From the NCBI GenBank assembly GCA_903832665.1, contig CAILCG010000020.1:1-64000 (forward strand): a stretch of DNA of 64,000 nt, written 5' to 3'. Positions 9,889 to 40,056 of the stretch are shown piece after piece. How positions within the stretch are numbered: position 1 is the first letter of the stretch; each line of letters opens with the position of its first letter. The DNA is from an uncultured Methanomicrobiales archaeon. GTDB taxonomy: Archaea; Halobacteriota; Methanomicrobia; Methanomicrobiales; Methanospirillaceae. Under the pieces are notes generated by a model that worked only from the letters and a program-made list of their open reading frames with translations, made no database searches and was not told the origin of the DNA. The position numbers were made by a program, and so were the translations under genes.

Positions 9889-11621
9889 TCAGGGTTCCTC
9901 ACCCGATTCACAAAATGGCCCACTTTCTTTAGCCAGATGCACAATCGTGCTGCCTTCCTCAATGTCGGCCGGGTTGTGGGTCACGATGATCACGGTCTTG
10001 TCGGGCAGCTGCCGTATCACCAGGTAAATGGATCGTTTGGATTCGTCATCAATGGAGCGGGTGAATTCGTCAAAGACGATCACGGGCGAATCCCGCAGGA
10101 GGACCCGCGCCAGGGCAATCTTCTGCATCTCACCGCTGGAGAGATTATGGCCGGACTTCCCCACGCAGGTATCATACTTCCCGGGAAGATTATGTATAAG
10201 CTCATCCAGACCGGCCTTGTGCGCCGCCAGGTACACCTCTTCCCGGGTTGCCGACAGGTTCCCGACCAGGATATTGTTGTAGATCGAACCGTCAAAGATC
10301 ACGGAATCGGAAAATATTATCGAGATGTACGACCGGAGATCGTCCAAGCGTACCGATGCAAGGTCCAGGCCATTAATCGTGATCCTGCCGGATTCCGGGG
10401 AATATAACCGGCAAAGATGTTTGAGCACGGTTGATTTCCCCGATCCGTTCTCGCCGGTCAGGTAATTGATCCCCCGGGTGAAATGTCCGTTGAAATCCCT
10501 GATGATGACCCGGTCGTCATACGAGAAAACGACATGCTCAAACCGGATATCACCAGCCCCATCCGGTGGCAGAGCTATGCTCCCCTCAGTACCGGGAGCA
10601 AGGTCCAGCACCTCGGCAACCCGGTCATAGGAGGCCTGGGAAGTCTTGTACGAAGTCCAGAGATCCGAGACCTGCAGGACCGGCGAGAGGAAGAGGCTGA
10701 CATACGCGATGAACGCAGTCAGCGTCCCGATCGTGATCGTTCCCTCCAGGACAGAGATGCTTCCCAGCGTCAGGATGAGGAGCGTGGGAACACTGTAGAT
10801 GAGCATGGTGACCGCCGCGCTCAGGAACGAGAGCCTGATGACCGAGACGGAGGTCTCCCGAAAGCGGAGGAACTGCCGGTCGTAATTTTTCTCCGCCCAG
10901 TTTTCCAACCCGAAGACCCGGATCAGGGAACCGTAGGGCAGGGTCTCCTTGAGATACGATTGTATGCCGGCATCCGCATCCAGGGCCGGCCTCTGGGCCG
11001 CCTTCATCCGCTTCACCAGGCTGAGGAAAAAACAAACAGCACTGCCGGCACGATTACAGCCACCGCAAGGGTCGCATCCATACTGATCATGATGCCAAGC
11101 GGCAGGCAGATGCCGAGGCTTATGACAAGAATCTGGGGGATGGTCCGGATGGCGGTCTGGACAACCGGGGTCATATTTCCCGTTACCCGGGACAACAGGT
11201 CACCGGTCCTGAACTTCTGCAGGGATGCATATTCCGCCCGCTGGATGTGGGCAAAGATGCGGGATGAAAAGTCACGGTACAGGTCGATATAGAGCGTTCC
11301 CCGGACCCGGGCAGAGAGGGAGTTTGAGAGAGCCGAGATGAAGAAGATCCCCGCCATGGCGAGAAGAAGCGGGGTGAGAAGGGACGTGTTCTTCCCGATG
11401 AGCACATCATCGATCAGCGACCGCATGATCAGCGGGCTGATGATGGCAAAGAGCGTCCCCGAGATACTCAGCAGGATGACTGTCAGGTAGGCAAACGGCC
11501 GGGCACGACAGATCTCAAAGAGGAACCGGTTGTACCCGTATCCCCCGCGTGGTGTCACATCGGCTGACGTTTTTTCTATGGCAGTCTCCGGATCGTTCGA
11601 GAGTATGCGTGCCGGGATCAA
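9889..11621 (-). CDS. ABC exporter, fused membrane and ATPase half-transporter, frameshifted
   Basis: The two open frames (11013-11621 and 9889-11016) make one half-transporter of about 577 residues. The N-terminal part holds the six-helix exporter domain (FAYLTVILLSISGTLF, then SRVTGNM). The C-terminal part is the nucleotide-binding domain with Walker A GENGSGKST, signature LSSGEMQKIALAR, Walker B VIVFDEF and H-loop VTHNPAD. The break lies at a run of six T on the coding strand (11027-11032); one more T would read VLFVFFLSLVKRMK. Such proteins dimerise and export lipids, peptides or drugs; the substrate cannot be told. Either a sequence error or a recent pseudogene. Confidence 0.85.
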
Positions 11622-20138: not shown

Positions 20139-20221
20139 TTTCTGGAGAAAAATGTATGGAAATCTGTAACGGGATTTCATGGACCTGCACGCACGGTCAT
20201 ACCCTACGAAAAGGGAGCCAG

Positions 20222-21153
20222 ATGAAAATGTTAAAGATTTTTGTAATTGCCATTGCAGCAGCCTGCCCGTTTGTATGCCTGCCGGGTGTTAGTGCAACCG
20301 GCGATCTTGCCGGAAATGACGTTACCTCATCCACGGGCAATCACCCCATTACGGTGGATCAGGCAAAGAACAGTGTCCGCCATTTCATGGACGATATGAG
20401 TATCGATCCGGTCTTCAACCCGGATGTCAGTGATGTCAGCACGGGAAATATCTGGAACCTGTATTATCTCTCTGCAGGTAATGCAAGTTTCCGCGTGAAT
20501 GAGAATACCGGCATTGTCGAGTTCGCCCATTTTGATGACAACGGCGGGCTCACCCCGGATCCCGCGAACAGCCGCGACACTGCCTTTGAAAATGCACGGG
20601 AATATGCCGGGAAAAATATGATGGATTTTCCGGAAAGACCTGGAAACTGGTGATAGACAAGGTATACGAGTACTCCTACCCGAAGTACAATGTCACTGCA
20701 CAGAAGAATGAGTGGACCGTAGTAACCCGGGACTATGTTTTTGTATTCCGCGAAGTGAAAGACGGGGTCCTTCTTCCCAATATCGTCCAGGTCCGGATCA
20801 ACCCGACCACGGGAGCTGTCGAGGATTACTGGGGCGTTGACCGCATAGTCACCACCGGCCTGAAGAACACGATCTCCTTGGATGAAGCAACAACAATTGC
20901 AAAGGATCGTATCGTGGCAGAGCGGCCAAATGCGGATGTTGTGATCAACTCGTCAGATGGATACCTCGCGGTTGTCACCTGCAACAGGAATGGCCAGAAC
21001 CTGGCATGGGTCGTTGAAATAACCTACCACGCATGGGGCAGGGATTACGAAAGGAAAAATACGGTCTTTGTCAGTGCTGATGATGGATCGATCCTGACCG
21101 CCAAGTCGATGGGCGGAGAGATCTGGCCCGAGTCACGGATCAGCTCATTATAA
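20222..21153 (+). CDS. Secreted PepSY-like domain protein, frameshifted
   Basis: The ATG at 20222, with GGGAG before it, starts a signal peptide (LKIFVIAIAAACPFVCLPGVSA). Two open frames (20156-20653 and 20650-21153) join if the TTTT at 20636-20639 had one more T, giving MMDFSGKTWKLVIDKVYEYSY, so the gene is one protein of about 310 residues. Two or three repeats of the kind TVDQAKNSVRHFM / SLDEATTIAKDRI followed by RVNENTGIVEF / RINPTTGAVEDYWG / FVSADDGSIL look like PepSY units, which often inhibit secreted peptidases. Exact role unknown. Broken by a one-base shift at a homopolymer. Confidence 0.75.
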
Positions 21154-21526: not shown

Positions 21527-23625
21527 GTGATATCCGTCAACAAGAGAACACTCGGGCTTATTGCCCTTATCGTCATTGTTCTGGCCGCCGGTGCTTGGAT
21601 CGGGTACACGACCATCCACGCAAATACGCCGGTACGGATCGGTGTCCTCCTCCCCATAACCGGCGATGTAGAATTCAAAGAGCCTCTTGAATGGGCAAAA
21701 GATACCATCAACAGCCAGAGCGGGATCGCGGGGAGGCCGGTTGAACTCGTGTACAAGGACACCGGGTCCGGTAATGTGACCCGGCTGGCTCAGGAGCTCC
21801 TGAACGATGATTCCGTCCGCATCGTGATGGACCCGACACAAGTGACGACGTGTACGCGCTTGCTCCTGCATTCATTGCAAAGAAGAAGGTCCTGATAAGC
21901 CCGTCCGCAACCTCCGGGGATATCCTGCGGGCATTCGGCAAAAACGGGTATGTATGGCGGACCGTGCAGGGCGATGTTGCCCAGGTCAAGGTGATCCTCA
22001 CGATCCTGAAAGGGAAGGGGGCGACAAAAGTTGCACTGCTTGCCACGAACGACACCTATGGCAAAACATTCTATGACTGGACCGGGTTCTTTGCCACCGA
22101 ATACGGTATCGAGGTCCCCTTCATCCGCCAGTTCGATGCCGGGTCGCCCACGATCGAATCCGATGTAGCCGATGTCCTGAAGACGGACCCGGATTACCTT
22201 GTTGCAGCCTGCTGGCCGGAAGATGCCGCCACGATCAAACGGGCGATCGACCGATCCGGCAGCAGGACAAAACTCTTCCTCACCGATACCGGAGCCTAGC
22301 CGGCCCTGTTCAGTTCACTTGGGGCTGCGGCCGATGGTATCGAGGGCACCAGCCCGAAAGCCGACCCGGCAACCGGCTTTACTGAGGCATACCAGAAAAA
22401 ATTCGGGCACCGCCCGGATGATCTGGCAGCGCCAACCTACGATGCCCTCCTGATCGCTGCATTTACCGAAGCCCGCCAGGAACGGGCCCTCTTCGAGTCA
22501 CTGGCAGACTCGGTCCGCCAGGTTGTGTACGGCGAGGCCACCGTCACCGGCTGGGATGCACTGGGAGTCCACACGGCAATCCAGGATACCCTGCACGGGC
22601 CCATGCCCTGGATCACCGGTGCCAGCGGCGGGCTGGAATATGACGAAGTGCTCGGCGTTGACCCGATCGCTTCGTATTACGCTAACTGGCAGGTGAGCAA
22701 CGGTACGTTCCGGACCGTCCGGGTCCTGGATTCGAAGAACAGCACCGTCCCTGACAAAACCGGCGGAGAATCGGCCGGGCAGTCCCATGCCTCGGCCGGA
22801 CTTATGTCCACATCGTCAGCCCTTGCAGGCGTGTACAGTGCTCCGGGTGAGAGGACACATTTCAAAGCCGTGATCGTCGGTCCGTCGCGGGGGTGGGCCA
22901 ATTACCGGCACCAGGCCGATGCCCTGGCAATCTATACCCTGCTTCGCCACAACGGGGTGAGCGACGACGATATCATCCTGATGGTGTACGACGATCTCCC
23001 CACCCTCCCGGAAAATCCCCTAAGGGGAGACATCCACAATATTCCGAAAGGACAGAATATCCGGGCCGGGGCACAGGCAGATTATACCGGTGCAAACGTG
23101 ACTGCGGCCATCTTCAAAAACGTCATGACCGGTACCAGGAGCTCAACTACCCCGGTTGTGCTGGAGAGCGATGCCGGCACCGATGTATTCGTGTATATCG
23201 CGAGCCATGGTTCGCCGCAAAACATTGTATTCGGGACAGGAAACTCGTTACTGGCTACGGAAGATTTCACCACCCTTACGAATTCAATGGTGAAGGACCA
23301 CCGGTACCGGCAGATGGCCTTTTTCGTGGATACCTGTTTTGGGGAGAGCATGGCCACCAACGTGACCGCACCGGGTATCCTATACCTTACAGGCGCAGCC
23401 AGGAGCGAGCCCTCGCTCGGGGCAGTGTATGATACCGACATCCGACAGTGGCTCTCGGACGAGTTCACCGCCGGAATCATCACCTCGCTCAAGGCCAATG
23501 GCAATGTCACGTTCCGGGAACTCTATCCCGAGGTGTACCAGAGAGTGACAGGCTCGCATGTCCGGATGATCAGCACGGGAAAATTCGACATGGACACGCC
23601 AGTCCTGCAGTATTTCAAACCATAA
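21527..23625 (+). pseudogene. Solute-binding domain fused to a legumain-type (C13) cysteine peptidase, with two lesions
   Basis: One product of about 700 residues. It has an N-terminal signal/anchor (LGLIALIVIVLAAGAWIGY), a branched-chain amino-acid-binding type I periplasmic domain (IGVLLPITGDVEF, SPSATSGDILRAFG, PTYDALLIAAFTEA), then a C-terminal domain (about 440-640) that follows legumain closely: GWANYRHQADALAIYTLLR, MVYDDLPTLPENP, DYTGANVT, catalytic His in YIASHGS and catalytic Cys in FVDTCFGESM. Legumains cleave after Asn/Asp. Lesions: a one-base loss near 21835-21842, before SDDVYALAP, and an in-frame TAG at 22297-22299 in TDTGA-PALFSS. The catalytic pair and following sequence are intact, so the damage is recent or a sequence error. 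Confidence 0.85.
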
Positions 23626-25123: not shown

Positions 25124-25281
25124 GGTGGAGTTTTTGCATTTTTGATGCAATTGCTACTTCAACCATTTCAGGGTCGGTGCCCGGCCCGAAGGATCTGGGA
25201 TCATACAATCCTCAGAAGTACCGGTAAAAACCAGGATACAAACGGTACCGGGACACCATGGTAAAAAAATCCGGAGTCATT

Positions 25282-26346
25282 ATGTCGCACACGATCCATC
25301 ATCTCTTGGTATTGGCAATTTTCATCGGAATGCTCTTTCCGGCAGTTTCTGCCGATATCTCAGCGGTTCAGGAACTTCCCCGGGTCCATATCCTTGCAAC
25401 CGGGGGGACCATTGCGGGGAATGCCAACAGTTCAACGGACACCGTGCATTACCGGCCCGGAGAGATTGGCGTGGATGTGCTGATCGATTCTGTACCGGAG
25501 ATCCGCCAGTATACCCGGGTTACCGGAGAGCAGGTCTGCAACATCAACAGCGACGATATCACCCCCGCCATCTGGCTCAACCTTTCCCGGCGGATCAATG
25601 CAGTACTGGCAGATCCCGGCGTTGAGGGAGTTGTCGTCACCCACGGGACAGATACGCTCGAAGAGACAGCCTACTTCCTCAACCTCGCAATCCTGAGTGA
25701 AAAATCCGTTATCATCACCGGCTCCATGCGCCCGGCAACCGCCCTCTCAGCAGACGGCCCCATGAATCTCCTCAACGCGGTACGGCTGGCAGCAAGTGAA
25801 GATGCCCGGGGGAAGGGGGTGCTCATCGCATTAAACGGGGAGATCAACGGGGCACGCGATACAACCAAGTCCAATACCCAGTCGGTCCAGACATTCAGTT
25901 CGCCGGATCTCGGGCTCTTTGGTTACGTGAAAGATGGAAAGCCCATGATATACCGGACTTCGGCCCGGAAGAACACCCTGTCTTCGGAATTCAATCTCTC
26001 CAGTCTGACAGCTCTCCCCCGGGTCGATATTGTCATGACGTACCCCGGTATGGACAGCGTGGCAATGGACGCCTTTTCCGGCCGGGGAAGTCAGGGTATT
26101 GTGGTTGCGGCAATGGGAAATGGCGAATACCCGGCCGTGATCCAGCCTGCACTGGAAGCTGCTGCACTCAAAGGGATTCCTGTGGTCATCTCTTCGCGGA
26201 CAGGGAGCGGTATCACTTCGGTAAAAGATCCCCGGTTCATCTCAGCCGATACCCTGACCCCCCAGAAGGCCCGTATCCTGCTGATGCTGGCCCTTACAAA
26301 AACGAACAATCGGGACCGGATAGCGGGTATGTTCCGGAACTACTGA
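25282..26346 (+). CDS. ansB: Secreted L-asparaginase (type II-like)
   Basis: Hydrolyses asparagine to aspartate and ammonia. From the ATG at 25282 there is a signal peptide (HLLVLAIFIGMLFPAVSA) and then the asparaginase fold. The catalytic Thr lies in LATGGTIAG (T43) and the second active-site motif is VVVTHGTDTLEETA. Other hallmarks are ITGSMRPATALSADGP and VVISSRTGSG. Length is normal (about 354). An upstream ATG at 25258 would only lengthen the N-terminus. The gene stands alone, followed by T-rich sequence at 26348-26356. Export implies scavenging asparagine, or asparagine-containing peptides' products, outside the cell. Confidence 0.9.
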   Translation: MSHTIHHLLVLAIFIGMLFPAVSADISAVQELPRVHILATGGTIAGNANSSTDTVHYRPGEIGVDVLIDSVPEIRQYTRVTGEQVCNINSDDITPAIWLNLSRRINAVLADPGVEGVVVTHGTDTLEETAYFLNLAILSEKSVIITGSMRPATALSADGPMNLLNAVRLAASEDARGKGVLIALNGEINGARDTTKSNTQSVQTFSSPDLGLFGYVKDGKPMIYRTSARKNTLSSEFNLSSLTALPRVDIVMTYPGMDSVAMDAFSGRGSQGIVVAAMGNGEYPAVIQPALEAAALKGIPVVISSRTGSGITSVKDPRFISADTLTPQKARILLMLALTKTNNRDRIAGMFRNY

Positions 26347-39051: not shown

Positions 39052-40056
39052 ATGACTTCATTTGACCCAGAGAATTGGGTGATTTTTTCAGCAGGTCTGT
39101 TGATAGGATTGGGTTTAACTTTTATCGCAACCGCTTACATAGATTTAGATTCACGTTTACAAGACCTTAAAATAAGAACAAATAAACTTACCACAGAAGA
39201 AGCACTTAAAATTACTAGTCGTAATTATCAATTAATTCAAGCAATTTTTTTAATCCTTGTTCTTTTGTTGGCCGGTTTATTTCTATTAACAATTGGCACC
39301 TATTCAATAGGATTTTTCATAAACACATCGGAAACAACGAGCCCGAATCAAGTAAACATTTTTGCTTCGGTTTACAATTGGACATTTTCTAATATTTTAG
39401 GAATAATTATTGGTCTGATTTCGGGGTTACTTTCCACTTTCATTACTGCGAAATATGTTACTAAAAAACAGCGTGCAATTCAGATTAACGATGATTTGGA
39501 AAAATGTCTTGACGATATCACTACGAATAAAATAAGATTGACTGAAGAAGCTCTTGACAGACAGTTTGGACGAATACGAAATATTGTCAAAGAAAAAAGA
39601 ATAATCGCTCATACGAATCCAGAAAAAGCAAAAGAATTATGGGCTGCATTTGAAAAAGATGAATTTGATTTCTCTTTATCAAATTATTACCAATATCTTC
39701 TCGTTGATAATCTCAATTATTTTTTAATGTCGTATGCACATCATTATCCTAAAAAATTCAATTCGATGAAATCTAAATTTAGATCTATGAAAGAATTACT
39801 TTCGATATACATTGAATTTAATCGGCAATTGCAAGTATATGAAATTGAACTTCTCAATAGTGTCAATGCGTTAATTGAGAGTAAGGATTTTGATGAATTA
39901 AAGTATGAGGCCAATGTCAGTCTGAACATTTCAAAAATAAATCAATATTATCAAAATAATATCACAAAAATCAACCAAAATTATTCAATAATTCATCCTG
40001 AATCTTATTCCGAAATGGAAATTCATGTTAGTTTTTTTAAGGGCGATTTTTATTAA
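39052..40056 (+). CDS. AT-rich hypothetical membrane protein
   Basis: 334 residues. Three helices (VIFSAGLLIGLGLTFIATAY, AIFLILVLLLAGLFLLTIGTY, NILGIIIGLISGLLSTFIT) are followed by a long soluble, Lys/Asn/Tyr-rich helical region. Codons end mostly in A or T, unlike all neighbours, so the gene is a likely recent arrival, as with 1-1051. No family recognised. Confidence 0.7.
   Translation: MTSFDPENWVIFSAGLLIGLGLTFIATAYIDLDSRLQDLKIRTNKLTTEEALKITSRNYQLIQAIFLILVLLLAGLFLLTIGTYSIGFFINTSETTSPNQVNIFASVYNWTFSNILGIIIGLISGLLSTFITAKYVTKKQRAIQINDDLEKCLDDITTNKIRLTEEALDRQFGRIRNIVKEKRIIAHTNPEKAKELWAAFEKDEFDFSLSNYYQYLLVDNLNYFLMSYAHHYPKKFNSMKSKFRSMKELLSIYIEFNRQLQVYEIELLNSVNALIESKDFDELKYEANVSLNISKINQYYQNNITKINQNYSIIHPESYSEMEIHVSFFKGDFY

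What the first reader, a model, noticed from the sequence alone, without database searches (positions are those of the whole stretch)
21527..23625. Solute-binding domain fused to a legumain-like cysteine peptidase in an archaeon
The C-terminal part follows eukaryotic legumain (MEROPS C13) over about 200 residues, including the YRHQAD stretch, MVYDD, DYTG, and the catalytic His and Cys. Here it hangs on a branched-chain amino-acid-binding domain with an N-terminal anchor, so it would sit outside the cell. A binding module joined to a caspase-fold protease could be a receptor whose ligand switches on cleavage after Asn/Asp. This is the most unusual protein in the window.
Basis: partly seen in the sequence, partly recalled or inferred. 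Interest (0 to 1): 0.8.

Follow-up and report, generated by a model that had tools for sequence, protein, structure and literature searches.

The report
Broken copy of binding-domain–legumain fusion protein
A methane-producing archaeon carries a recently disabled copy of a cell-surface protein that joins an amino-acid-type binding domain to a legumain-like protein-cutting enzyme; intact copies in related archaea and in gut bacteria usually come with a second binding protein, pointing to a shared and apparently undescribed sensing-and-cutting module.

Summary
The two domains are real. Peripla_BP_6 is followed by Peptidase_C13 (E 4e-49), and an AlphaFold model of an intact relative matches LivK-type binding proteins (Z 35) and human legumain (Z 37, 1.6 Å). 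The fusion is also real: close Methanoregula relatives carry it as one open frame of about 700-740 aa. But the window copy is not one gene. It has a 1-nt deletion at 21828/21829 and an in-frame TAG at 22297-22299, which lies inside the binding domain, not at a domain boundary. No pyrrolysyl-tRNA synthetase was found. dN/dS (0.14) shows selection until recently, so it is a fresh pseudogene or carries assembly errors. The catalytic His/Cys and the Asn/Asp S1 pocket are conserved in all 37 relatives. The intact fusion is often translationally coupled to a second, anchored binding protein (Bmp/PnrA-like), with no importer genes nearby. In other Methanomicrobiales the same binding domain is fused directly to Bmp. 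Bacteroidota and Treponema share the fusion–Bmp pair, sometimes behind a MACPF gene. The window genome lacks Bmp as well. Best reading: an extracytoplasmic, ligand-regulated Asn/Asp-specific peptidase module, decayed here. The ligand, the substrate and the gating are inferred, not shown.

The parts
21527..21828 (+). 5' part of the broken gene: GTG start, N-terminal membrane anchor (about 21551-21607), first part of the Peripla_BP_6 domain
   Evidence: (PF13458, E 5e-8, profile 1-79)
21828..21829 (+). 1-nt deletion (GTGAT-GGACC; all three nearest orthologues have one base more here); frame 1 then ends at TGA 21893-21895
21829..22296 (+). second part of the binding domain, in the shifted frame
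   Evidence: (PF13458, E 1e-10, profile 83-218)
22297..22299 (+). premature TAG inside the binding domain (AAA Lys in G043, ACG Thr in G069/G070); no PylS over its cut-off; TAG also ends 6 of 33 long window ORFs
22300..22866 (+). last part of the binding domain and linker
22867..23622 (+). legumain-like Peptidase_C13 domain to the end of the protein; no legumain C-terminal prodomain follows
22900..22920 (+). NYRHQAD motif; its Arg is the S1-pocket Arg44 equivalent
23206..23208 (+). catalytic His (legumain His148 equivalent)
23329..23337 (+). Asp-Thr-Cys: S1 acid (Glu187 equivalent, Asp here) and catalytic Cys (Cys189 equivalent)

Best explanation
The window holds a recently disabled copy of a membrane-anchored fusion protein: a type I periplasmic-binding (LivJ/LivK-like) domain followed by a legumain-type (C13) cysteine peptidase domain. 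In genomes where it is intact, the protein sits on the outside of the membrane, by a signal-anchor helix in archaea or a lipobox Cys in bacteria. It works with a second anchored binding protein of the Bmp/PnrA type. Proposed mechanism: the binding domains sense or capture an extracellular small molecule or peptide, and this controls or directs an Asn/Asp-specific cleavage (possibly transpeptidation) of a surface protein by the C13 domain. Shown: domain identity, fold, invariant catalytic residues, fusion in many lineages, coupling to Bmp or direct SBP-Bmp fusion, absence of importer genes in the loci inspected, and the two lesions. Inferred: activity, P1 preference, ligand, gating, substrate. 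In this genome the module has probably decayed, since the fusion gene is broken and the Bmp partner is absent.
For: C13 and Peripla_BP_6 profile matches. AlphaFold model of the Methanoregula OWC_0058 orthologue, pLDDT 83.6: residues 442-696 fit human legumain at Z 37.5, 1.6 Å, 30% identity, and residues 35-406 fit LivK 3td9 at Z 35.3. Invariant R44, H45, H148, C189 and S216 equivalents; E187 is D/E and D231 is D/N in 37 sequences. The binding-pocket acid equivalent to the LivJ/LivK ammonium ligand is Asp/Glu in 31 of 34. Bmp directly adjacent or overlapping at 10 Methanoregulaceae loci, in G129, and at 8 of 10 bacterial loci. SBP-Bmp fusion proteins at seven other Methanomicrobiales loci. Bmp present in 20 of 26 genomes with the fusion-type C13 versus 15 of 82 without. 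Window copy: two lesions, dN/dS 0.14, no Bmp in the genome, and none at the syntenic place of the G043 Bmp.
Against: No direct evidence of proteolysis, ligand or gating exists for any member. The co-occurrence count is not corrected for phylogeny. Several intact fusions, including the nearest relatives G043, G069 and G070, have their Bmp unlinked, and G002, G003, G009, G034 and G073 lack one. Reads were not available, so the lesions could be assembly errors; another window gene (ABC exporter, 9889-11621) also shows a frame break against a homologue.
Confidence: 0.5

Rival explanations
1. The two lesions are assembly or sequencing errors, and this genome encodes a normal intact fusion protein.
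For: dN/dS of 0.14 with no excess of amino-acid changes on the window branch (56 N/97 S versus 47 N/74 S on the sister branch). Only two lesions. A second frame break in the same window, in the ABC exporter near 11016.
Against: The assembly scores 98.8% complete and long genes such as the 863-aa ClpB-type ORF are intact. The deletion is not in a homopolymer and the second lesion is a base substitution. The partner Bmp is missing too, although its flanking genes are present. A truncated C13 copy also occurs in G035.
Confidence: 0.35
2. The C13 domain acts as a GPI8-like or asparaginyl-ligase-like transpeptidase that attaches surface proteins, the binding domains serving as acceptor or donor holders.
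For: The domain fits GPI transamidase PIG-K (Z 36.3) and plant asparaginyl ligases nearly as well as legumain, and sequence matches include GPI transamidases and peptide ligases.
Against: Legumain scores highest in sequence (115 versus 90 bits). No GPI-like pathway or sorting-signal family was looked for or seen. Ligase and protease cannot be told apart by these data.
Confidence: 0.2
3. A degradative surface peptidase that feeds amino acids to the cell: the binding domain only holds peptides for scavenging.
For: The LivJ/LivK-like domain keeps the amino-acid pocket signature. A secreted asparaginase lies 1.6 kb downstream in the window.
Against: No ABC importer permease or ATPase noticed in the neighbourhoods inspected. 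The asparaginase is not in the conserved neighbourhood of relatives. The second partner is Bmp-type, a family otherwise known for nucleoside binding.
Confidence: 0.2
4. The TAG is read through, or the frames are joined by recoding, so that the window copy is functional.
For: Purifying selection right up to the present sequence.
Against: No PylS over its cut-off. TAG is an ordinary terminator in this window. Orthologues have variable sense codons (Lys, Thr) at the site. Two independent recoding events would be needed.
Confidence: 0.03

Closest known systems
Legumain / asparaginyl endopeptidase (MEROPS C13; human 4awb, 7fqk)
   Same: Same fold over 253 residues at 1.6 Å with 30% identity; His/Cys dyad and S1-pocket residues conserved
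   Different: No C-terminal prodomain; N-terminal LivJ-like binding domain with membrane anchor; works beside a Bmp protein
GPI-anchor transamidase catalytic subunit PIG-K/GPI8 (C13; 8imx chain K)
   Same: Same fold at Z 36.3, 28% identity
   Different: No transamidase partner subunits seen; prokaryotic; fused to a binding domain
LivJ/LivK-type amino-acid binding proteins (Peripla_BP_6, PF13458; 3td9)
   Same: Whole two-lobed fold and pocket signature
   Different: No linked ABC importer in the loci inspected; carries a protease domain; below every NCBIfam cut-off
Bmp/PnrA-like binding proteins (PF02608)
   Same: The partner matches the family strongly (E 6e-47)
   Different: Orphan, no ABC importer genes beside it; coupled to or fused with the LivJ-like domain
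Fragipain/doripain C11 proteases that activate Bacteroidales toxins (PMC9308784)
   Same: Clan CD proteases of Bacteroidales that process surface or secreted proteins; a possible analogue for the MACPF-linked loci
   Different: Different family (C11, cutting after Arg); no binding-domain fusion; function of the C13 loci untested

Membership tests
Peptidase family C13 (legumain) | Match to the C13 profile over its curated cut-off | tested here: met
   PF01650 168 bits versus cut-off 22.8, profile 3-242 of 258
Peptidase family C13 (legumain) | Catalytic His/Cys dyad | tested here: met
   Present in the window DNA and invariant in 37 sequences
Peptidase family C13 (legumain) | Caspase-like fold as in legumain | tested here: met
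   Model of orthologue L031: Z 37.5, 1.6 Å to 7fqk_A
Peptidase family C13 (legumain) | Asn/Asp S1 pocket (Arg44, Glu187, Ser216, Asp231 equivalents) | tested here: met
   R and S invariant, E187 as D or E, D231 as D or N; activity itself not tested
Legumain proper (zymogen with C-terminal prodomain) | C-terminal prodomain after the catalytic domain | tested here: not met
   The protein ends right after the catalytic domain
Amino-acid binding proteins of ABC importers | LivJ-like two-lobed fold | tested here: met
   Z 35.3 to LivK 3td9 over 334 residues
Amino-acid binding proteins of ABC importers | Linked permease and ATPase genes | tested here: inconclusive
   None noticed next to the fusion in 30 loci by clustering and reading of ORF starts, but neighbours were profile-annotated only in part
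Functional gene in this genome | Uninterrupted reading frame | tested here: not met
   Deletion at 21828/21829 and TAG at 22297; sequencing error not excluded
Pyrrolysine-decoding gene | PylS in the genome | tested here: not met
   Only weak class II synthetase-like matches below the cut-off

The most novel reading that the evidence does not exclude
A conserved extracytoplasmic module shared by methanogenic archaea, Bacteroidota and spirochaetes, in which two different small-molecule binding domains (LivJ-like and Bmp/PnrA-like), coupled or fused, gate a legumain-type Asn/Asp protease: a ligand-controlled surface protease, linked in some bacteria to a MACPF pore-former that it may process.
Probability: 0.35. 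Interest if true: 0.78.

Novelty: new variant of a known kind. Interest (0 to 1): 0.55.

Why it matters
C13 enzymes are studied almost only in eukaryotes, where activity is controlled by a C-terminal prodomain or by transamidase partners. Here intact prokaryotic relatives lack the prodomain and instead carry a ligand-binding domain plus a second binding partner, a recurrent architecture across two domains of life that I found no description of in the literature library searched. If ligand gating is real, it would be a new way to control a clan CD protease and a possible receptor type in archaea. The window copy suggests that the module can be lost, with its partner, in one lineage.

Tried and rejected
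Two separate genes with a boundary at the TAG: rejected, since orthologues read through and the TAG lies inside the binding domain. Pyrrolysine at the TAG: no PylS. MACPF partner in archaea: none in 108 Methanoregulaceae genomes. Functional link with the neighbouring asparaginase: not conserved in relatives. Literature on the fusion or the operon: searches for legumain/archaea/C13, peptidase C13 with substrate-binding protein, MACPF with legumain, PnrA with MACPF, PF01650 with archaea, and Methanoregula with legumain gave nothing on it. The 2010 Bth-MACPF paper describes a MACPF cluster; the passages read mention no such pair. C13 in archaea as such is known (PMC4357240 Table 1; PMC6461988). 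NCBIfam has no model that the fusion passes.

Full report
Observation. The window at 21527-23625 (+) contains matches to Peripla_BP_6 (PF13458) in two frames, and to Peptidase_C13 (PF01650, 168 bits against a cut-off of 22.8) at 22867-23571. The best solved relatives are human and other legumains (2e-32) and then GPI transamidase. The frames do not join. The first ends at TGA 21893-21895, and the second has TAG at 22297-22299. Aligned with the three nearest orthologues (L011 in G043, 84% aa identity; L007 in G070 and L006 in G069, about 77%), the window lacks exactly one base at 21828/21829. It has TAG where they have AAA (Lys) or ACG (Thr). The rest aligns without further indels in the coding part.

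Is the fusion real? Yes. In 108 Methanoregulaceae genomes, 30 have C13 matches; most strong ones are single frames of about 670-760 aa, with a few cut short by contig ends or by decay. Full-length alignment covers both domains. The same fusion was found in Bacteroidota and Treponema loci and in another Methanomicrobiales family (G129). In the tree the window copy is sister to G043 (SH-aLRT 98), and archaeal and bacterial fusions separate. G058 is labelled same genus as the window genome, and its contig 5 has the same length (156193) as the contig of locus L031, which is titled Methanoregula sp.; so the host is most likely Methanoregula.

Structure. AlphaFold on L031 with 12 aligned rows gave mean pLDDT 83.6 and pTM 0.80. 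Residues 442-696 match human legumain (Z 37.5, 1.6 Å, 30% identity) and PIG-K (Z 36.3). Residues 35-406 match LivK of Thermotoga (Z 35.3) and other amino-acid binding proteins. Residues equivalent to legumain Arg44, His45, His148, Cys189 and Ser216 are invariant in 37 sequences; the Glu187 position is D or E, and the Asp231 position D or N (mapping from the alignment). The equivalences of individual S1 residues come from established knowledge of legumain structures. The binding domain keeps the Ser/Thr and acidic pocket positions of amino-acid binders. Archaeal members begin with a hydrophobic anchor and bacterial ones with a lipobox-like Cys. No legumain prodomain follows the catalytic domain.

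Partner. Neighbourhood clustering showed one recurrent neighbour, a Bmp/PnrA-like binding protein (PF02608, E down to 6e-47), often overlapping the fusion gene by four bases. It is adjacent at ten Methanoregulaceae loci (G068, G071, G005 twice, G042, G040, G055, G061, G067, G089), in G129, and at eight of ten bacterial loci. In other Methanomicrobiales the same LivJ-like domain is fused to Bmp in one 723-784 aa protein (L103, L104, L105, L107, L108, L110, L111), which suggests the two proteins act together. Three bacterial loci have a MACPF gene upstream by profile (L036, L037, L038); L034 has a clustered, truncated relative. No MACPF was found in Methanoregulaceae. Bmp occurs in 20 of 26 genomes with the fusion-type C13 and in 15 of 82 without (Fisher 8.5e-8, not corrected for phylogeny). 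The standalone Bmp genes of G043, G068, G069, G070, G058 and G042 are anchored; only an ABC exporter-like gene, no importer, was noticed beside the G043 one.

State of the window copy. dN/dS against L011 is 0.14, and the window branch carries 56 nonsynonymous and 97 synonymous changes, against 47 and 74 on the sister branch. The gene was therefore under constraint until very recently. PylS is absent and TAG is an ordinary stop here. The genome has no Bmp. At the place syntenic to the G043 Bmp, the flanking methyltransferase (83%) and a 143-aa protein (77%) are present, but Bmp is not. Loss of both parts favours real decay. Against this, another gene in the window also shows a frame break, and reads were not available, so an assembly error remains possible (about one in three).

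Mechanism. Shown by sequence and model: anchoring, an outward binding domain, a competent C13 site, and association with Bmp. Inferred: cleavage after Asn/Asp, control by ligand or by Bmp, and a surface-protein substrate. A transpeptidase role (as in GPI8 or plant ligases) is not excluded. For the MACPF-linked bacterial loci, activation of the pore-former is a possibility only; the known precedent in Bacteroidales is toxin activation by C11 proteases (PMC9308784).

Novelty. C13 in archaea is known (PMC4357240; PMC6461988). The binding-domain fusion with a Bmp partner was not found in the library searched, nor as an NCBIfam family. I rate it a new variant of a known kind.

Noticed in passing
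window 9889-11621 (-): ABC exporter homologue split into two frames near 11016-11019 where a G043 homologue is continuous (27% identity): a second frame break in the window.
   Followed up: partly
window 20156-21153 (+): Secreted PepSY-domain protein apparently split over two overlapping ORFs (20156-20653, 20650-21153), possibly another frame break.
   Followed up: no
window 25258-26346 (+): Secreted type II asparaginase 1.6 kb downstream of the fusion; not conserved beside the fusion in relatives.
   Followed up: partly
L103, L104, L105, L107, L108, L110, L111: Single proteins of 723-784 aa joining the LivJ-like domain to a Bmp/PnrA domain in other Methanomicrobiales: tandem binding-domain receptors without a transporter.
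   Followed up: partly
L036:2-1915, L037:198-2900, L038:548-2920: MACPF genes upstream of the Bmp and fusion genes in Bacteroidota and Treponema.
   Followed up: partly
L014 / L064 (G035): C13 half of the fusion joined to unrelated upstream sequence, with the binding-domain half missing: another decayed copy.
   Followed up: partly
L109 (G066:C1:1030884-1031561): Fragment of the binding domain with an internal TGA and possible transposase-like ORFs nearby: a remnant copy.
   Followed up: no
window 39052-40056 (+): ORF of 334 aa with third-position GC of 0.24 against 0.6-0.8 around it: probably foreign DNA.
   Followed up: no
L063:6442-7680 (G006): A second Peripla_BP_6 protein overlaps the fusion gene by four bases in place of Bmp.
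   Followed up: no
L020 / L059 (G034): Fusion protein with about 38 extra residues between the binding domain and C13, in a genome without Bmp.
   Followed up: no
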